The notes beneath the pieces are model-generated. The model was not told where the DNA came from and did not search any database. It saw nothing but the letters and a program-made list of their open reading frames with translations. Below are positions 3,369-64,000 of a DNA stretch of 64,000 nucleotides, piece by piece. The stretch spans positions 6,634,001-6,698,000 of the forward strand of contig NZ_CP036426.1 of NCBI RefSeq assembly GCF_007752535.1. The letters run 5' to 3'. The stretch is from Tautonia plasticadhaerens (GTDB lineage Bacteria; Planctomycetota; Planctomycetia; Isosphaerales; Isosphaeraceae). How positions within the stretch are numbered: position 1 is the first letter of the stretch; each line of letters opens with the position of its first letter. Made by a program: the position numbers and the translations under genes.

Positions 3369-5627
3369 TCAACCGCCTGACTGGGCCTTGAGGATGATCA
3401 CCCCGAGGGGCGGCAGCGTGAGGTTGAGGTGATAGGGGCGGCCGGCGTGGTGCTCGGGGATCGACTCGAGATAGCCGGCATTCCCGGCATTGGAGCCGCC
3501 GTAGATGGCGGCGTCCGAGTTGAAAAGCTCGCGATAGCCGCCCCCGTGGGGCACGCCGATGCGGTAGCCCTCCCGCAGGCATGGGGTGAAGTTGCAGACG
3601 ACGATGACTTCGTCGCCGGGGTGCTTCCCCTTCCGAAGATAGGCGAGCACGCTGTTCTCCCAGTCGTGCAGCTCGAGCCAGTCGAATCCCTGCCACTCGA
3701 AGTCGATCTGGTGCAAGGCCGGCTCGGAGCAGTAGATCCGGTTGAGGTCGGCGACCATCCGCTGGAGGCCGTGATGGTCGGGCCACTGGAGCAGGTGCCA
3801 GTCCAGGCTCTGGGACTCGCCCCACTCGCGCCACTGGCCGAATTCGCACCCCATGAAGAGGAGCTTCTTGCCCGGGTGAGTCCACTGGTACGAGAGAAGA
3901 AGGCGGAGGTTGGCGACTTTCTGCCACTGGTCGCCGGGCATCTTGTCGAGCAACGCCCGCTTGCCGTGCACCACCTCGTCGTGCGACAGGGGGAGCATGA
4001 AGTTCTCGGTGAAGGCGTAGACGAGGCTAAACGTCAGGCTGCCGTGCTCGTACTTGCGATACACGGGATCCTTGGCGAAATACCGGAGCGTGTCGTTCAT
4101 CCAGCCCATGTTCCATTTCAGGCTGAAACCGAGGCCGCCGATGTAAGTCGGCCGCGAGACGCCCGGGAACGCGGTGGATTCCTCGGCGATCGTCAGGACG
4201 CCGGGGAACTGGGCATGGGCCGACTCGTTGAACTTCTTGAGGAAGTCGATCGCCTCCAGGTTCTCGTTGCCTCCGAACGCGTTGGGGACCCACTCTCCCG
4301 GGTTTCGGCTGTAGTCCAGGTAGAGCATCGAGGCGACCGCGTCGACCCGGAGGCCGTCGATGTGGTACTTGTCCAGCCAGAAGAGGGCATTGGCCAGCAG
4401 GTAGTTGCGCACCTCGGCGCGGCCGAAGTTGTAGATCTTGGTGCCCCAGTCGCGGTGCTCCCCGAGGCGGGGATCCTCGTGCTCGTAGAGGTGTGTGCCG
4501 TCGAAGAAGCCCAGCCCGTGCATGTCGCGGGGGAAGTGGGCAGGGACCCAATCCACGATCACGCCGATGCCGTGGCGATGCAGCGTGTCGACGAAGGTGG
4601 CGAACTCGTCGGGTGAGCCGAACCTCGAGGTGGGGGCATACAGGCCGACCGGCTGGTAGCCCCAGGAGCCGTCGAAGGGGTGCTCGCTGATCGGCAATAG
4701 CTCGACGTGGGTGAATCCCATCTCGGTCACGTAGGCGGCCAGTTGCTCGGCCAGCTCCCGATAACTGAGATAGCCGTTGTCCTCGGCCTTACGCCTCCAG
4801 GAACCGAGGTGGACCTCGTAGACGGAGATCGGCGCGTCGAGGGCCTGACGCTGTTCGCGTCGAGCCATCCACTCCGAGTCGTCCCAGTTAAAGCCGTCGA
4901 CGTCCCAGACGATCGAGGCGGTCTGGGGACGCTGCTCGGCGTAGAAGCCGAAGGGGTCGGCCTTCGAGACGAGGTAATCGTTGTAACGGCTCTTGACCTC
5001 GTACTTGTAGACCTCTCCCGGTTCGAGGTCGGGGATGAAGACCTCCCAAAGGCCGGTCGGTCCGAGGTTCCGCATCGGGTGGCGTCGGCCGTCCCAATGG
5101 TTGAAGTTGCCGACGACACTGACCCGCCGGGCGTTCGGGGCCCAGAGGGCGAAGTGGACCCCCCGGATGCCGTCGACCTCCCGGACGTGGGCACCGAGCT
5201 TGTCGTACGCCCTCAGGTGGTTGCCCTCGCCGAGCAGGTAGATGTCGAAGTCCGAGAGCACCTGTCCGAACCGATAGGGGTCGACATACTGCCAGGAGTG
5301 CCCCTCGCCGTTCTCGACGGCGATCCGGTACGGGGGGGCGGAGGACCGCCCGGTGATGACCAGTTCGAACAGCCCGGCGGGGTGGAGCCGCTCCATCTCG
5401 ACCCGGCGACCCGGCTCGCCGCCGGACAGGTCGACGACCCAGGCCTTCCGGGCATCCGGGGCCAGGGTCCTGATCGCGACCGCCGCCCGGCCATTCTCCC
5501 CCACCGGGTGCGGCCCGAGCACCCCGAACGGATCCCAGTGGTTGGCGTGGATCAGGTGGTCGACGTCCGAGGGATGGAGCGTCGCGCCTCGGGGTCGGGT
5601 GCCGGTCGGCGGGGTGGTCGTACTCAT
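3369..5627 (-). CDS. glgB: 1,4-alpha-glucan branching enzyme (GH13)
   Basis: The 752-aa protein matches the full domain order of GlgB: N-terminal CBM48-like modules (HANHWDPFGVLGPH near residue 30 and FALWAPNARRVSVVGNFNHWDGR around 160), a GH13 barrel, and a C-terminal beta domain ending in LPPLGVIILK. Barrel motifs visible are DWVPAHFP, GLRVDAVASMLY (nucleophile Asp), LTIAEESTAFP (acid/base Glu) and LPLSHDEVVHGK. It cuts alpha-1,4 glucan chains and re-attaches them as alpha-1,6 branches during glycogen synthesis in the cytoplasm. No other glg gene is adjacent. The start at 5627 gives a normal N-terminus. Confidence 0.97.
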   Translation of the reverse strand: MSTTTPPTGTRPRGATLHPSDVDHLIHANHWDPFGVLGPHPVGENGRAAVAIRTLAPDARKAWVVDLSGGEPGRRVEMERLHPAGLFELVITGRSSAPPYRIAVENGEGHSWQYVDPYRFGQVLSDFDIYLLGEGNHLRAYDKLGAHVREVDGIRGVHFALWAPNARRVSVVGNFNHWDGRRHPMRNLGPTGLWEVFIPDLEPGEVYKYEVKSRYNDYLVSKADPFGFYAEQRPQTASIVWDVDGFNWDDSEWMARREQRQALDAPISVYEVHLGSWRRKAEDNGYLSYRELAEQLAAYVTEMGFTHVELLPISEHPFDGSWGYQPVGLYAPTSRFGSPDEFATFVDTLHRHGIGVIVDWVPAHFPRDMHGLGFFDGTHLYEHEDPRLGEHRDWGTKIYNFGRAEVRNYLLANALFWLDKYHIDGLRVDAVASMLYLDYSRNPGEWVPNAFGGNENLEAIDFLKKFNESAHAQFPGVLTIAEESTAFPGVSRPTYIGGLGFSLKWNMGWMNDTLRYFAKDPVYRKYEHGSLTFSLVYAFTENFMLPLSHDEVVHGKRALLDKMPGDQWQKVANLRLLLSYQWTHPGKKLLFMGCEFGQWREWGESQSLDWHLLQWPDHHGLQRMVADLNRIYCSEPALHQIDFEWQGFDWLELHDWENSVLAYLRKGKHPGDEVIVVCNFTPCLREGYRIGVPHGGGYRELFNSDAAIYGGSNAGNAGYLESIPEHHAGRPYHLNLTLPPLGVIILKAQSGG

Positions 5628-5966
5628 GATGGCATCGATATCCGATAGGGTCCGGTGCGTTCCTTCATCCTCGGCGCAAGTCCCGGCCAGCTTGCCTGTA
5701 GGCTAGTCGTCACGGACAGAGGCTGCAACCTCAATGCCGATTCCCTGCCGGGCTGGCGATTGATCGTTGCGGCCGAGTTTGCCATGATGGGATCGTCGCG
5801 ATGGCTCCGGGACCGCGGCCGACCCTCGCCGTGCCCCGCACGGAGGCCGGGCCCGCGACCTCGCCCGACGGGCCGGGCGATCGATCGATCGACGTCGGGC
5901 CGCCTCAGACGGTCGACGGCCGGCGGGACGACACTCCGTGGGGACCGGATCGCGGGCGAATCGGTA
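5628..5966. other. Intergenic region between divergent glgB and the REC-histidine kinase gene
   Basis: The 339 bases lie between divergently transcribed genes and should carry the promoters of both. An open frame continues upstream of the kinase gene's ATG, but it encodes an Arg/Pro/Gly-rich stretch typical of non-coding GC-rich DNA, so it was not included. A run of GATC-type tetramers sits at ~5878-5892. No convincing promoter boxes or RNA gene were seen. Confidence 0.5.
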
Positions 5967-58373: not shown

Positions 58374-59531
58374 ATGAAGACATGTCCTGTCGTCGTCTTC
58401 CTGGCGTTCGTCCAGACCTGCTCGGCCCAGTGGAGGCCCCAGGAGAGCGGTAGCGGGGCCCGACTCCGAGGCCTGAGCGTCGTCGACCGGGAGGTGGCCT
58501 GGGCGAGCGGGAATGGGGGGACGGTCCTTCGGACCATCGACGGCGGGAAGTCCTGGACTGCCCGCCCGGTCCCGGACGCCTCGGCCTTCGACTTCCGGGA
58601 CATTAAAGACGTCGATGCCGACACCGCCTACGTGCTCTCGATCGGCGAGGGGGACTTGTCCCGGATCTACAAGACGAGCGACGGTGGCGCGACCTGGGCC
58701 CGGCTCGACTGTCACCCCGATCCCGATGGATTCCTCGATGCGATCGCCTTCTGGGACGCGTCCCACGGCCTTGCCTTGGGAGACCCGGTCTGCGGCCGCT
58801 TCGAGGTCAACTCGACCGATGACGGCGGGCGGACCTGGCGAGCGATCCCGGCCGACGGGATGCCCCCGGCCCTGCCCGGTGAGGCCGCCATCGCCGCGAG
58901 CGGGACGTGCCTGGTCGTCCGAGGGGGCAACCTCGCCTGGTTCGCCACCGGAGGCGGCGGGGTCGCCCGGGTCTTCCGATCGACCGACCGGGGTCGCACC
59001 TGGACGGCCGTGGAGACCCCGGTCCCGGCCCCGGACACCGCCTCGGGACTCTTCTCGATCGCGTTCCGCGATGACGAGAACGGCGTCGCCGTCGGAGGCA
59101 AATTCGCGGAACCGAACGCGGCCGGCGGGTTCGTGGCCCTGACGAGAGACGGCGGCCAGACCTGGGAGCCCTGCCCGGGGGACCCACCCACCGGCTACCG
59201 CTCGGCGGTCGCCCTCGTCCCGGGTCAACCGACGCCGAGGTTCGTCGACGTCGGCCCCGCGGGCTCGGACCGATCGACCGACGGCGGGCGAGTCTTAAGA
59301 TCCCTCGGGTCCGAAGGCTTCCACGTCGTCAACTACTCAACCGACGGCGCCGGCTGGGCCGGCGGGGAAAATGGATCGATCGCGAAATACCTCGATCCTC
59401 TTCCTCACCTCAAGTCGTACCCGTGGCGAGAGGACGTAGAACGCTGTACTTTCGGCATCATCGCCGCAAGTCATCCTGGGGTAGTATGCCCGGCAGGACT
59501 TGAACCTGCAACCTTTAGCTCCGGAGCCTAA
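58374..59531 (+). CDS. Ycf48/Hcf136-like exported beta-propeller
   Basis: From the ATG at 58374 the protein is 385 aa, with a signal peptide (~1-18, VVVFLAFVQTCSA). Repeated blades carry the Ycf48 or BNR-type motif (TIDGGKSWTARPV, TSDGGATWARL, TDDGGRTWRAIP, TDRGRTWTAVE, TRDGGQTWEP). Ycf48 proteins act in photosystem II assembly in cyanobacteria, but related propellers occur widely in other bacteria as exported proteins of unknown function. The real domain ends near GSIAKYLDP; the last ~50 residues read across a tRNA fragment on the opposite strand, so the true end may be different. Confidence 0.8.
   Translation: MKTCPVVVFLAFVQTCSAQWRPQESGSGARLRGLSVVDREVAWASGNGGTVLRTIDGGKSWTARPVPDASAFDFRDIKDVDADTAYVLSIGEGDLSRIYKTSDGGATWARLDCHPDPDGFLDAIAFWDASHGLALGDPVCGRFEVNSTDDGGRTWRAIPADGMPPALPGEAAIAASGTCLVVRGGNLAWFATGGGGVARVFRSTDRGRTWTAVETPVPAPDTASGLFSIAFRDDENGVAVGGKFAEPNAAGGFVALTRDGGQTWEPCPGDPPTGYRSAVALVPGQPTPRFVDVGPAGSDRSTDGGRVLRSLGSEGFHVVNYSTDGAGWAGGENGSIAKYLDPLPHLKSYPWREDVERCTFGIIAASHPGVVCPAGLEPATFSSGA
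59485..59526 (-). tRNA. 3' part of a tRNA-Arg(CCG) gene; probable attachment site of an integrated element
   Basis: On the minus strand the sequence runs from an anticodon loop CTCCGGA (59526-59520, anticodon CCG) through the 3' anticodon arm GCTAA, a 5-nt variable loop, a T arm GCAGG-TTCAAGT-CCTGC, a 3' acceptor strand CGGGCAT and discriminator A; no CCA is encoded. Upstream of the loop the 5' anticodon-arm bases match imperfectly (G-G at one pair), and no D arm or 5' acceptor strand can be found. It is therefore the 3' half only, as left when an element integrates into a tRNA gene. The 3' end faces the chromosomal genes to the left, placing the element to the right. Confidence 0.7.
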
Positions 59532-60205
59532 TGGGGCCGCATGGGGCTTGCATGTCCTCTGAATGGACAATGGACGGCAAATGATTTGGAATGAAGGGTT
59601 TCCGTTAATTGTTCGTGGCGATCACATGGGAGACATCTTGTGTTTGCGCGGCCCCTTCTGTCGCAGAATCGTCGCAGTTCGAGAGGGGATGGTGCGGAGG
59701 TGTTAACTGGCATTGGACTGGCCGTCGGAGGACCCGAAGGCCCGGCCGATCCCCGGCGCCTGGTGGCGATTGCGGAGGCTACAGGCCCCGAGGCATTCGG
59801 ATCGTCGGGGCGTTGAGCCTGCAACCCGCTCTGGAATTGTCGCCCTATGCCGTAGTCAGGCGGGCCCCGGCGAGGATGTGCAGGAGGGCCTCCCCCTGCT
59901 CGGCGGTGATCCCCCCGGCGTCGGTAAGGTCCTCGACCCGGCAGTCCTCGACGACCCGATGCTTGCCGGGCGAATTGCCTCCCGAGGAGGAGGATTGGCG
60001 AGGTAGGACGGATCGGCTCATCGGCTCCGATGATCCCTTGAAATCGGGACCGATCATCCCGTCGTGCCAAATTGGACTTTAGCATCCACTTTGAGGCGGG
60101 TATCCTGGGATGCGACTCAAGGGCCCGGGTACCGAGGCGCCGGCGAGCGGTCGATGACCGAGGCTGGACCCCGAACCGGCCCCGACCCAAGCCAAGAGGA
60201 GGCTC
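59532..60205. other. Start of the putative element: mostly non-coding
   Basis: The 674 bases after the tRNA fragment differ from the flanking DNA: they contain AT-richer parts (59575-59650). A possible short minus-strand gene (59845-60021) is listed separately. No integrase gene is visible at this end. No promoter could be assigned with confidence; AAGAGGAGG at the right edge is the ribosome binding site of the cupin gene. Confidence 0.4.
59845..60021 (-). CDS. Possible small protein (58 aa), unknown
   Basis: A minus-strand frame from the ATG at 60021 encodes 58 residues; an upstream in-frame ATG at 60057 would give 70. The C-terminal half (DLTDAGGITAEQGEALLHILAGARL) looks like a natural helical segment rather than a shadow frame. 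GGAG lies three bases before the ATG at 60021, closer than ideal. I recognise no family. It may be a small accessory gene of the element or a fragment. Confidence 0.35.
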   Translation of the reverse strand: MSRSVLPRQSSSSGGNSPGKHRVVEDCRVEDLTDAGGITAEQGEALLHILAGARLTTA

Positions 60206-60538
60206 ATGATGGCCCTGGACCATGCGAAGCCCGGCGAGGTGATCGACGTGCGGCCCCTGGGCGAGGCGCTGGCCGACGCACGTACCACGACCCTGATCAA
60301 GGCCGAGCGCCTGGAGGTCTTGCGGCTGGTGCTCCCTGCCGGCAAGGAGATCGCTACCCATACCGCCCCCGGCCCGATCACCGTCCACTGCCTCGAAGGC
60401 CGGGTGGCGTTCACGGTCTTGGGCGAGGAGCGAGAGCTTGGGGCGGGCCGGATGCTCCACCTGGGGGCCGGCGAGCCGCACTCATTGCGCGGCATCGAGG
60501 ACGCTTCCCTGCTGGTGACGCTAGTGCTGGTCAAGTGA
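60206..60538 (+). CDS. Cupin-domain protein
   Basis: The 110-aa protein is a single small cupin. After TTTLIKAERLEVLRLVLPAGKEI come the two conserved motifs in reduced form: HTAPGPITVHCLEGRVAF (motif 1, with His53 and the Glu of LEGR) and GAGRMLHLGAGEPHSLRGIED (motif 2). The strong ribosome binding site AAGAGGAGG lies six bases before the ATG. Such proteins bind a metal or small ligand; enzyme activity cannot be predicted. It is the first plus-strand gene inside the putative element and is separated from the next gene by a hairpin. Confidence 0.85.
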   Translation: MMALDHAKPGEVIDVRPLGEALADARTTTLIKAERLEVLRLVLPAGKEIATHTAPGPITVHCLEGRVAFTVLGEERELGAGRMLHLGAGEPHSLRGIEDASLLVTLVLVK

Positions 60539-60639
60539 TCCGAACCCAGACGATCGCCTCGATCCCGTTCTGGCTGCTCAGGGGAACGTGTCCTGGAAGC
60601 CGCTCCGGCTCGGACGAGCCTTGACCCCGAGCCACGAAT

Positions 60640-60660
60640 CCCCAACCAAGTTGGTTGGGG
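60640..60660. terminator. Palindromic hairpin between convergent genes of the element
   Basis: CCCCAACCAA and TTGGTTGGGG are exact reverse complements around a single G, giving a usable stem CCCCAACC/GGTTGGGG with a 5-nt loop. It lies between the end of the cupin gene (60538) and the end of the minus-strand ParB-methyltransferase gene (60686), so it could terminate both. There is no T-run. Confidence 0.5.
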
Positions 60661-60685
60661 GCGGGTCAGGTGCCGCCCCCCAGCA

Positions 60686-62887
60686 TTAGAGATCGACCAC
60701 GAACCCCGTCTTGTCCCGCCGGGCTCCGGCGCCCTTGGCCACCACGCCGACGATGGCGGGGCTCGGGTCGAGGAATCTCAGGTCATCCTTGTCCCCGTCG
60801 ATCACCGGGTACCCCCAGTACGTCTCCGGGATCGGCTTCCGGCGGAACACGACCACGACGTTGCGGCCGGCCTCCAGGACCCGACGGCAATCCGCCTCGT
60901 TCTGCTCGGACCTGGAGAACGTCAGGTGGTAGTTGGCCGGGCGGTCGGTGGCCAGTACGCGATCAACATGCTTGGTATAGTCCATGAATCGGACCCGGGG
61001 GTACTCGGCGAACAACTCGGGCCATTCCCGCTCCCAGGGTACGTCGCTGACGACGTTCAGCCGGCACACGAGGGGCACCCCCCGCTCATCCGCCTGCTGC
61101 TGGGCCTGCTGGAGTTCGTAGGCGACCATCGCCCGGAAGTGGTCCGGGTCCCGGGCAAGCAGCAGGGTCCTGGCGATCATCGCCCGCTTTGCGTTGGGCC
61201 AGTTCAAGCGATCCCAGCCCGCAAAACAGGCCGCCCCGCAGCCCGCCGTGGCATGGCGGCAGAGGTGCAGGCCCGAGCCGCCGCTGTCGCGCGGCGTCAG
61301 CGTCAACCCCATCGAGAGATACCCTTGGCCCTTGACCTGCTTGTAGTTCGCGTTGCTGAGCAAGGTTTCCAGGCGGTGGGTTGATCCGTCGGGCATCTGC
61401 ACCAGTGCCGGGGACGGCGGCCTCCGGGGGGTACGGGCCACGGCCATCGGTACCCCGTCGGGCAAACCGGCGGCGATCTTGCTTCTGGCAATCCGGAACG
61501 TCTTCTCTTCGACCTCCGATCCGACCCACAGCCGTCCCTCACCCAGGCGCCGCACGGCCACGCCGCCGGTACCAGTTCCCGCGCACAGGTCTACGATCAG
61601 GTCGCCGGGCCGGGAGAGCCTGGCGAGCCAGTGGACGCTCTCGCCGACCGGCTGGGCCCAGTCGTGGGCCTCCTTCTCGGCGGGATCGCCCGTATATACA
61701 TCTGTCGTGAAGCCGAGGTCGTTCGGGTCGAACGTCCAGCCCGGTGACTTGCTCCACACAAAAATCTGGCGTGACTTTCGAGCTATCTTCGTGATGAAGA
61801 ACTGGTCCTTCTTCTGGGACTGGTTCAAATTGATCAACATGCCTCGGTAGTGCAACGACTTGCCGAGGACCGCCATCAACTCCGGCAGCCAGGGGCAGTT
61901 CCCATAGTACGTGGCGAAGGCCCCGTCCTCGGCGAGGTACTCGATGGCGAAATCCACCACCGCCTCGCCGTTCTTCTTGAGCCATTCCGACGACCACGGG
62001 AAGTCGGTCCAGACGAGGTTGACCTGACCGGGTTGCAGTTTCGCCCGTACGGCAAGGCTTCGAAAGTCGCAGTTGTAAACCCGGGCATCGGCCGGCTGGC
62101 GTACCAACGGGGAATTGGCCAGCGCCTCCCGCCGCTCCTGGTGGGCCGCCCTGACGACATCCCGGTTGGTTAAGATGATCTTGCTGGCCGGCAGCTTCTC
62201 CGGGTCGATTCGGCTCAGGGTGTCGGCGTGGCGGGGGGCGTGATTGAGCCTCGTGTGGTACACCGGCAGCCGGCGGGGCTTGGTCGCCGGATGGACCTGG
62301 CCGTTGCGCGCGACCCGATGGTCGGTCCGTGGTACCTCCCCCGACGCCTCCAGCGCCCGGCGGTAGTTTGCGATCGTCTCCTTGCAGGTACCCACCAGAT
62401 CGGCGATAGATCGGTCGGAGAGGTTGGGGTTGCGGAGCAGTTCGGCCCGGCCCAACTGCTGCTTCTCGGCGGTACTCAGGGATCGGTGGCGATTTTCGAG
62501 GTGAACCCTGGCCCACTTCTGTTCCTCGCTCAGGCCGACGACGATTTCCACGGGGTAGTCGGTGGAGCCCAGGTGCTCCAGCGCTCGTCGACGGCGGTGG
62601 CCGCTGAGGATGTGGCCCTCGGGGGTACAGACGAGCGGTCGGAGCAGGCCGTGCTCGGCGACCTGCCGGCAGAGCGACTGGTACTCCTCGTCGTCCCGGT
62701 CGGGGTACACCTTGAACGGCTGCTCAGCGGCGAAGAATGACCTCGACCTCGTGTTCCGCCGGTTCTCCGGCCTGGGCTTCGGTTCGGGCGGCGAAACCGG
62801 CTTCCGGAGCGTGTCGGCCTGGTCCTTGGCGGGCGGCTCGGGGGAGTTCCGGCGAGAGGGGCTCTTGGTCGTGGCGAGCCGGTGCAT
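60686..62887 (-). CDS. Three-domain protein: ParB-like domain, DNA methyltransferase, phage gp88-like domain
   Basis: From the ATG at 62887 (GGAG seven bases upstream) the protein is 733 aa. Residues ~1-50 are basic and disordered. Residues 55-185 form a ParB/Srx-type domain (GHILSGHRRRRAL, 91-103) with a KorB-like helix-turn-helix (LSDRSIADLVGTCKETIANYRRAL). Residues ~265-475 form a methyltransferase of N4/N6 beta type: a motif IV-like TDFPW (294-298) and an AdoMet loop DLCAGTGTGG (433-442). Residues ~505-733 resemble phage gp88-type proteins: a cysteine cluster CRHATAGCGAAC (543-554), NVVSDVPWE, FMDYTKH, YHLTFSRSE and the end DKTGFVVDL. The third domain looks like a phage protein of unknown function. 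The ParB domain may guide DNA binding. The D-F-P-W in place of the usual D/N-P-P-Y/W could mean altered chemistry. Confidence 0.8.
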   Translation of the reverse strand: MHRLATTKSPSRRNSPEPPAKDQADTLRKPVSPPEPKPRPENRRNTRSRSFFAAEQPFKVYPDRDDEEYQSLCRQVAEHGLLRPLVCTPEGHILSGHRRRRALEHLGSTDYPVEIVVGLSEEQKWARVHLENRHRSLSTAEKQQLGRAELLRNPNLSDRSIADLVGTCKETIANYRRALEASGEVPRTDHRVARNGQVHPATKPRRLPVYHTRLNHAPRHADTLSRIDPEKLPASKIILTNRDVVRAAHQERREALANSPLVRQPADARVYNCDFRSLAVRAKLQPGQVNLVWTDFPWSSEWLKKNGEAVVDFAIEYLAEDGAFATYYGNCPWLPELMAVLGKSLHYRGMLINLNQSQKKDQFFITKIARKSRQIFVWSKSPGWTFDPNDLGFTTDVYTGDPAEKEAHDWAQPVGESVHWLARLSRPGDLIVDLCAGTGTGGVAVRRLGEGRLWVGSEVEEKTFRIARSKIAAGLPDGVPMAVARTPRRPPSPALVQMPDGSTHRLETLLSNANYKQVKGQGYLSMGLTLTPRDSGGSGLHLCRHATAGCGAACFAGWDRLNWPNAKRAMIARTLLLARDPDHFRAMVAYELQQAQQQADERGVPLVCRLNVVSDVPWEREWPELFAEYPRVRFMDYTKHVDRVLATDRPANYHLTFSRSEQNEADCRRVLEAGRNVVVVFRRKPIPETYWGYPVIDGDKDDLRFLDPSPAIVGVVAKGAGARRDKTGFVVDL

Positions 62888-63411
62888 GGGGAGGCTCCTG
62901 CGGGTACGGACGGAGGACGGGCCGGTCCGAGGCCGGTCATCGTGGCGCCCATGCAGGTAGCGTAGGTCAGGACGGCGCCCCTGGCCGCAAGGCGCATGAT
63001 GCAAAGACATTCCGCCCGGGGTACGCCGACGGCGACGAGGTGGGCCGGGGAGCCGTTCTTCGGGGAGGCCGGGACGGGATTGCCAAACTAGCCAGGGCGC
63101 ACTGCCCGGATGGCGCCCGCCAGGGCGATGTGCATCAAGACCATCCGGCGGGAATGCGATCGGCTGGCTCCTGGCTATGACCGGAGCCGGGGCCGCCGGG
63201 CCATGGGGGAGATGCGGTGCGTCCTCCGGCACGGCGGCAGCATGCAGGATCGTCCTGTTGGACTGATGCCGCGCCCCGCCGCCCTCTGCAATCCTCGATC
63301 TCGGCGGTCCACGAGGAGTCAATGCAGCCCTGGACGCTCTGGTAGGAGGGGCACGCCTCGGCGTAGCGCGGCCCCCGAGTGCCGGCCAGTCACCCGGCGA
63401 CCCCGGCGAAG
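62888..63411. other. 524-bp gap upstream of the three-domain gene
   Basis: Open frames here on both strands give Arg/Pro-rich shadow sequence. No promoter boxes, RNA gene or repeats were convincing. It should hold the promoter of the three-domain gene. Confidence 0.4.
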
Positions 63412-63900
63412 ATGACGATCAACGAGAACATCTCCGGCAGCGATAACTCCCCGCAGATAGTCGGCACAGCCCTCGGGGGGGCTGGGAATCGACGCACCGG
63501 GGGCGAAAGGGACGCCGCCGTTGGGCCTGGCTCTGGCCGGATCGCTTTGCAGGCGGGTGAACTGGGCCTCCTCGACGGGGCCCCCGGCCTGCGCAAATCC
63601 CTAATGGCTCTCAACTTGGCCGCCAGGGAAACGACCGGCGGGCCACTCCCGCATTTTGCGGGCCTTGCCCCTTCCGGCGGCGGTGTGGTCCTGCATGGCG
63701 AGGATGAGGAGCCGGTGCTCAGCCGACGCCTCCTGGACGCCGGGGCCGCCTGGATCGGGTCCGCATCCTCGCAGGCGGATTCGCCCTGCCGCAGTTCCTC
63801 GATAGCCTGGAGGAGGCAATTTCGGAGGTCGATGTGCGGCCGGTGATCCCTGACCACTCAACGACCTCCTCTACACTACACACCACAGAACACAAATGAG
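63412..63900 (+). pseudogene. RepA-like/AAA_25 ATPase pseudogene, frameshifted and truncated
   Basis: The first frame encodes a block like RepA-type ATPases: ELGLLDGAPGLRKSLMALNL and GGVVLHGEDEEPVLSRRLLDAGA. The Walker A should read G-x-x-G-x-G-K-S but has Arg in place of the Gly before Lys. At about 63741-63755 homology continues in a different frame: the second frame reads LDRVRILAGG and then LPQFLDSLEEAISEVDVRPVIPD, the expected continuation to the Walker B strand, before a stop at 63898. The gene is therefore broken by a single-base frameshift and stops soon after the expected Walker B region. The family is typical of plasmid and phage replication or primase modules. The exact start cannot be determined. 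Confidence 0.65.
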
Positions 63901-63906
63901 ACATCC

Positions 63907-64000
63907 ATGAAACTCGTTTGGAACGAGCGCTCGCCGGGTTACTACCGTTCAGGACGTGGTTCCCACGGGGATTACGCCATCGCCCAGCAGGAGGACGGGA
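63907..64000 (+). CDS. N-terminal part of a small protein, cut by the window end
   Basis: An ATG six bases after the pseudogene's stop opens a frame to the window end (31 residues: MKLVWNERSPGYYRSGRGSH, then GDYAIAQQEDG). The pattern Trp, then PGYYxSG, then DYAI, resembles small proteins that are common in phages and integrative elements. This is based on recall of a pattern, not a search. There is no strong ribosome binding site. If real, it is a further accessory gene of the element. Confidence 0.5.
   Translation, partial: MKLVWNERSPGYYRSGRGSHGDYAIAQQEDG

What the first reader, a model, noticed from the sequence alone, without database searches (positions are those of the whole stretch)
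59485..59531. 3' tRNA-Arg(CCG) fragment marks one end of an integrated element
The minus strand contains an anticodon loop with CCG, a variable loop, a perfect T arm and the 3' acceptor strand, but no 5' half. Such a fragment is the classic result of integration at the 3' end of a tRNA gene. Orientation places the element to the right, where a cupin, phage-type genes and a broken RepA-like gene replace the planctomycete genes to the left. An intact tRNA-Arg(CCG) should exist at the other end, beyond the window.
Basis: partly seen in the sequence, partly recalled or inferred. Interest (0 to 1): 0.65.

Follow-up and report, generated by a model that had tools for sequence, protein, structure and literature searches.

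The report
90-kb genomic island in tRNA-Arg gene
The tRNA fragment is a real scar marking one end of a large piece of foreign DNA that an integrase most likely inserted into a tRNA gene of a planctomycete bacterium; the insert carries genes of a phage-defence system, and the whole arrangement is a well-known kind of thing.

Summary
Window 59483-59531 (minus strand) is a 49-bp copy, 47 bases identical, of the 3' part of an intact tRNA-Arg(CCG). That gene lies on the same strand 90.6 kb to the right, beyond the window (E 6.7e-16). A tyrosine integrase gene starts 134 bp from the intact tRNA, with a small excisionase-like gene convergent to it. The DNA between has lower GC (66.9% against 70-71%) and carries all six type I BREX phage-defence genes. 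This is the signature of a genomic island integrated at the anticodon site of a tRNA gene.

The integrase has relatives in at least 103 of 297 genomes sampled from the class. In 29 of 45 family loci, own included, a tRNA lies 121-256 bp upstream on the same strand. A second member in this genome predicted, and a search found, a perfect 63-bp tRNA-Leu fragment 34.7 kb downstream. Other genomes have dissimilar integrases at the same tRNA-Arg(CCG), one with prophage genes.

Not shown: an empty site, excision, or transfer. New member of a known kind.

The parts
59483..59531 (-). Displaced 3' fragment of tRNA-Arg(CCG): left attachment site of the element (49 bp, 47 identical to the intact gene; perfect 27-bp core = tRNA bases 33-59)
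59483..64000 (.). The part of the 90.6-kb element that lies in the window. The rest is beyond it, on G000:C1 (subtract 6634000 for the window's scale): brxA 6756470-6757225 (model match begins at residue 54, so the true start is probably later), brxB 6757222-6757794, brxC 6757809-6761402, pglX 6761490-6765095, pglZ 6766093-6768711, brxL 6768701-6770755, all plus strand; excisionase-like HTH_17 stretch 6782471-6782659 plus (true start not determined); integrase 6782725-6783960 minus; intact tRNA-Arg(CCG) 6784094-6784168 minus, the right end
60206..60538 (+). Cupin_2-domain protein just inside the left end
   Evidence: Pfam PF07883
60686..62887 (-). GP88-domain protein with ParB-like and DNA-methylase regions (these two below Pfam's cut-offs, supported by PHROGs); weaker relatives at four other places in the same genome, one of them inside this element; no match in 3 congeners
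   Evidence: Pfam, PHROGs, genomes
63379..63846 (+). Short frame with a partial AAA_25 domain, perhaps a broken RepA-like replication gene
   Evidence: no PHROGs match

Best explanation
The fragment is the displaced 3' end of a tRNA-Arg(CCG) gene, left when a circular element of about 90.6 kb recombined into that gene. The element's own integrase most likely crossed over at the anticodon-loop region. The element brought its own copy of the tRNA's 3' part, so the gene at the right end stayed intact, while the old 3' part was pushed 90.6 kb to the left. The element carries a type I BREX phage-defence operon, DNA methylases and assorted cargo, and is probably maintained because it helps the host resist phages. 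Shown: both ends, their orientation, the integrase gene, the BREX genes. Inferred: the insertion event itself, the crossover position within the 27-bp identical core, the benefit to the host, and whether the element can still move.
For: A 49-bp direct repeat in the right orientation and order, found by a whole-genome search (E 6.7e-16). An integrase of Pfam PF00589 (2.4e-17) and PHROG 'integration and excision' starts 134 bp from the intact tRNA, with a convergent HTH_17 excisionase-like stretch. Of 45 family loci fetched (own included), 29 have a tRNA on the same strand 121-256 bp upstream. Candidate catalytic R265, R266, H359, R362, H385 and Y394 are invariant in a 45-row alignment, own entered twice and one short locus dropped. 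Independent prediction met: the family member beside tRNA-Leu(CAG) in the same genome has a perfect 63-bp 3' fragment of that tRNA 34.7 kb downstream on the same strand. GC 66.9% inside against 70.1% left and 71.0% right; coding density 0.77 against 0.94 on the left. All six BREX genes match PADLOC models. The mismatches fit a crossover inside the core: in 29 relatives' tRNA-Arg(CCG) base 32 is always C, so the fragment's G looks element-derived, whereas base 60 varies naturally (A 16, C 9, G 4), so the fragment's G there may be the original gene's.
Against: No empty site was found: tested neighbours on both sides are poorly conserved in congeners, and none of seven boundary proteins lay within 1.5 kb of the tRNA-Arg in 29 other genomes. 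The repeat has two mismatches. The three relatives whose tRNA is identical to the intact copy, one of them a congener, have A at base 60, which does not favour G as the ancestral state in this lineage. The best two-breakpoint fit to GC falls at the BREX genes rather than at the att ends (log-likelihood gain 116 against 106), and coding density in the short right flank is also low (0.75). Much of the cargo is not mobile-element-specific, so the 90 kb may have grown by several insertions. 16 of the 45 family loci show no tRNA upstream.
Confidence: 0.93

Rival explanations
1. The region is a composite: a smaller tRNA-targeted element at the right end (integrase, excisionase gene, perhaps BREX) and older accreted or rearranged DNA up to the fragment, which is the scar of an earlier element of a different integrase.
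For: Two mismatches in the repeat; a possibly broken RepA-like frame at the far left; mixed cargo with sigma factors, kinases and a sulfotransferase; dissimilar integrases use the same tRNA-Arg(CCG) in other genomes.
Against: No third copy of the att repeat between the two ends: the next best matches span at most 17 bases. With six integrases as queries, tblastn finds only the one integrase in 6690001-6796000. Pfam shows only one PF00589 among 74 of 86 called genes, although the pooled scan displayed only 25 of its 48 families.
Confidence: 0.3
2. A chance or duplicated tRNA pseudogene with no integration event.
For: tRNA pieces do get duplicated (general knowledge); this genome also has a tRNA array of 27 genes.
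Against: E 6.7e-16, right strand, right order, integrase at the expected place, and the same pattern for the related integrase at tRNA-Leu.
Confidence: 0.02
3. The element is a conjugative element (ICE) or an intact prophage rather than a passive island.
For: Size fits; ParB-like, GP88 and AAA phage/plasmid-type genes are present; a prophage sits at the same tRNA in G016.
Against: No MobA/VirD2 relaxase (PF03432) or TraG/VirD4 coupling protein (PF02534) was found in the genome (the same searches rang in only 1 and 5 of 14 control genomes). No terminase, portal or capsid among the Pfam results displayed. Other relaxase families were not tested.
Confidence: 0.1

Closest known systems
tRNA-gene genomic islands as catalogued by Islander (PMC4383910, passages read)
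   Same: Intact tRNA at one end, displaced 3' fragment in the same orientation downstream, tyrosine integrase inside, 2-200 kb long, anticodon-type attachment site (their class A).
   Different: Only in details: planctomycete host, a 90.6-kb island with BREX, two mismatches in the repeat.
Type I BREX defence system (PMC9240713, passages read)
   Different: About 1 kb separates pglX from pglZ here, whereas they abut in the congener G002. Methylation and defence untested.
Sister island at tRNA-Leu(CAG) in the same genome (G000:C1:1958753-1993558)
   Same: Same integrase family (41% identity), convergent gene resembling the excisionase-like one, repeat starting in the anticodon stem.
   Different: 34.7 kb, perfect 63-bp repeat, with a Prim-Pol gene.

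Membership tests
tRNA-integrated genomic island (Islander criteria) | Intact tRNA gene and a fragment of it on the same replicon | tested here: met
tRNA-integrated genomic island (Islander criteria) | Fragment is an end fragment, same orientation, 3' fragment downstream of the tRNA | tested here: met
   fragment covers bases 28-75 of 75, same strand, downstream
tRNA-integrated genomic island (Islander criteria) | Tyrosine integrase gene inside the interval | tested here: met
   PF00589 2.4e-17, starts 134 bp from the tRNA
tRNA-integrated genomic island (Islander criteria) | Length 2-200 kb | tested here: met
   repeat-to-repeat distance 90,610 bp from coordinates
tRNA-integrated genomic island (Islander criteria) | Fragment does not overlap a conserved protein domain | tested here: inconclusive
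   An ORF (58374-59531) runs into the fragment, but its similarity to a 346-aa paralogue ends at residue 342, before the fragment; the ORF itself was not scanned with Pfam
tRNA-integrated genomic island (general) | Empty site in a relative | tested here: inconclusive
   tested flanks poorly conserved in congeners
Type I BREX | brxA, brxB, brxC, pglX, pglZ, brxL all present | tested here: met
   PADLOC (pglX scores 1450 bits as PglX and 1430 as type IIG enzyme); Pfam for brxB, pglZ, brxL
Type I BREX | Site-specific adenine methylation and phage exclusion | not testable with these tools
   needs sequencing of modified bases and phage assays
Integrative and conjugative element | Relaxase and coupling protein | tested here: not met
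   PF03432 and PF02534 not found in the genome; other relaxase families not tested
Prophage | Terminase, portal, capsid genes | tested here: inconclusive
   none seen; 74 of 86 called genes scanned with Pfam, of which 35 in a pooled scan that displayed 25 of 48 families

The most novel reading that the evidence does not exclude
A planctomycete-wide family of tyrosine integrases specialised on the anticodon site of many different tRNA genes spreads large, defence-laden islands, and tRNA-Arg(CCG) in particular is a shared insertion hotspot used by at least three dissimilar groups of integrases (own; G016/G011; G033/G047), so that phages, islands and BREX carriers compete for one tRNA gene.
Probability: 0.5. 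Interest if true: 0.4.

Novelty: new member of a known kind. Interest (0 to 1): 0.27.

Why it matters
It gives both ends of a large defence-carrying island in a planctomycete, and an integrase family that links many planctomycete elements to tRNA genes. That makes it possible to map islands across the phylum with the fragment-plus-integrase rule and to ask how phage defences move there. As a single case it is ordinary biology.

Tried and rejected
Empty-site test: a left-flank protein (1328 aa) has no match in 3 congeners and one relative among the 20 other genomes searched. A right-flank protein (608 aa) is missing in 2 of 3 congeners and 43% identical in the third, though 12 of 21 genomes (own included) have a match, up to 57% in other genera. 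Seven boundary proteins were looked for within 1.5 kb of the tRNA-Arg(CCG) in 29 other genomes and none was found (30 loci, own included). So no clean uninserted site could be shown.

Left-flank gene e003 and element gene e058 are 68% identical, which at first looked like an inner duplication of the boundary; rejected because the family has five copies in this genome and members in 19 of 45 genomes, own included, and the scan lists no match over 17 bases to the tRNA there.

I first read the base-60 mismatch as decay of the dead copy. On recount, base 60 is A in 16, C in 9 and G in 4 of 29 relatives, so this mismatch does not by itself show age; the age argument now rests only on the partial AAA_25 frame and is weak.

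GC segmentation as an independent boundary test was only partly helpful. Plasmid comparison: a 10-kb stretch of contig C4 of this genome gave one 80% hit over 10% of it, in a Paludisphaera borealis plasmid, and the left-end GP88 protein gave two distant partial hits. Literature: Isosphaeraceae plus BREX, 0 papers; searches gave listings, of which I read passages only of PMC4383910 and PMC9240713.

Full report
What is there. The window is G000:C1:6634001-6698000 of a 9.4-Mb genome in six contigs. On the minus strand, 59483-59531 is a 49-bp match to the 3' part of a tRNA-Arg(CCG). It aligns without gaps to tRNA bases 28-75 plus one base beyond; the only mismatches are at bases 32 and 60, leaving a perfect 27-bp core, bases 33-59, from the anticodon loop to the T loop. 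There is no 5' half: ARAGORN finds no tRNA in the window and the Rfam tRNA model stays below its cut-off.

The other end. The intact tRNA-Arg(CCG) is G000:C1:6784094-6784168, minus strand. The repeat-to-repeat distance is 90,610 bp. For a minus-strand tRNA the 3' side is the left, so a displaced 3' fragment on the left and the intact gene on the right is the configuration expected after integration. The match is E 6.7e-16 against the whole genome, and no third copy lies between: the next best matches span at most 17 bases.

The mismatches. In 29 relatives' tRNA-Arg(CCG) genes base 32 is C in all and base 60 is A in 16, C in 9 and G in 4. The fragment has G at both. A crossover inside the core would put element DNA at base 32 of the fragment and original chromosomal DNA at its base 60, so a G at base 60 is possible without decay. 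Against this, the three relatives identical to the intact copy (one a congener) have A there. The data do not decide.

The recombinase. The first gene inside the right end (6782725-6783960, minus) is a 411-aa tyrosine integrase (Pfam PF00589, 2.4e-17; PHROG integrase, 2.5e-43) starting 134 bp from the tRNA. A short HTH_17 stretch converges on it and resembles the gene in the same position beside the sister integrase at tRNA-Leu (48% over 64 residues), so it is probably the excisionase. In an alignment of 45 rows (own twice, 43 other loci, L088 dropped as too short) the candidate catalytic residues (assignment recalled from general knowledge) are R265/R266, K289/K290, H359-x-x-R362, H385 and Y394; all but the lysines are invariant, and the lysines are kept in 43 and 44 of 45. 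With six integrases as queries, no second one shows in 6690001-6796000.

The family. In a sample of 297 genomes of the class, 103 have a relative at E 1e-20 or better; at most six candidates per genome were scored, so this is a lower bound. Fifteen more loci came from a named collection, all but one titled as planctomycetes. Of 45 loci examined (these 15 plus the 30 loci that one search returned for its strongest matches, own included), 29 have a tRNA on the same strand 121-256 bp upstream of the integrase, for Leu, Ser, Asn, Gln, Glu, Lys, Met and Arg; 16 do not, three of them with 220 bases or less of sequence upstream. Two of the 45 (L083, L084) are near-identical. I then used the family to make a prediction: the relative beside tRNA-Leu(CAG) in this genome (1958994-1960244) should have a 3' tRNA-Leu fragment downstream. 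The search found a perfect 63-bp one at 1993496-1993558, plus strand, 34.7 kb away. This supports the reading of both islands.

Cargo. A home-made gene caller gave 86 genes between the ends, of which 74 were scanned with Pfam, three of them in part, plus one extra frame (the last, a pooled scan of 35, displayed 25 of 48 families). Relaxase PF03432 and coupling protein PF02534 were not found in the whole genome (they rang in 1 and 5 of 14 control genomes). The element is therefore best described as a defence-carrying genomic island whose own route of transfer, if any, is unknown.

Composition. GC is 66.9% inside, 70.1% left and 71.0% right; coding density by the same caller is 0.77 inside, 0.94 left and 0.75 in the short right flank. 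A free two-breakpoint fit prefers the low-GC BREX stretch (gain 116) to the att ends (gain 106), so composition supports but does not by itself locate the ends.

Hotspot. In one search (59 genomes, own included; the match list was cut) partial 3' matches are listed in nine: own, G002, G011, G012, G016, G031, G033, G047, G056; for G012 and G056 I did not check whether a contig end explains them. In five (own, G011, G016, G033, G047) the fragment lies on the same contig and strand as the intact tRNA and on its 3' side. The four foreign intervals have integrases of PF00589, beside the tRNA in three and beside the fragment in G047. They fall into two groups by blastp (G016/G011 51%; G033/G047 about 25%) and show little similarity to the one here: at best 45 aligned residues, E 4e-6, for G033. 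G016 holds terminase and capsid genes. In G015, decayed pglZ and pglX pieces lie about 3 and 4.4 kb downstream of the same tRNA, while the closest complete BREX, in the congener G002, is on another contig with no tRNA within the 32 kb read.

What is not shown. No empty site could be found. Excision, transfer, methylation and defence were not testable. The interval may be composite.

Verdict. The observation and the interpretation stand. The structure meets four of the five published Islander rules in the membership table (passages read); the fifth, overlap with a protein domain, is inconclusive. It falls in their anticodon class, which counts 2083 of 3919 islands there. It is a new member of a known kind. 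The host is probably of the planctomycete family Isosphaeraceae; this is an inference from genome size, GC and the weak Paludisphaera hit, not a test.

Noticed in passing
G000:C1:1958753-1993558 (L130 holds the left part): Second island, 34.7 kb, at tRNA-Leu(CAG): related integrase, convergent gene like the excisionase candidate, Prim-Pol gene, perfect 63-bp tRNA repeat.
   Followed up: partly
G000:C1:5432023-5448210 (L041, L042): A third pair: intact tRNA-Arg(TCG) and a 3' fragment 16 kb away in the same orientation; none of the six integrases compared matches inside it, so it may be a decayed island.
   Followed up: partly
G000:C1:1488002-1490663 (L043:4002-6663): Array of 27 tRNA genes in 2.7 kb, minus strand, many with low Rfam scores and one more CCG anticodon; resembles the tRNA arrays reported from mycobacteria, phages and plasmids (paper listing).
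   Followed up: no
L136 (G015:C109):1006-2646 and 5577-5650: Decayed pglX and pglZ pieces 3-4.4 kb downstream of tRNA-Arg(CCG) in another genus, suggesting an earlier BREX island at the same site.
   Followed up: partly
L119-L120 (G016:C57:72001-112000): Prophage-like element (integrase, terminase, capsid) of about 37.6 kb flanked by tRNA-Arg(CCG) and its fragment.
   Followed up: partly
window 58374-59531: The beta-propeller-like ORF reads through into the tRNA scar and ends in the antisense-tRNA peptide CPAGLEPATFSSGA; the paralogue's similarity stops at residue 342, so the tail is likely spurious.
   Followed up: yes
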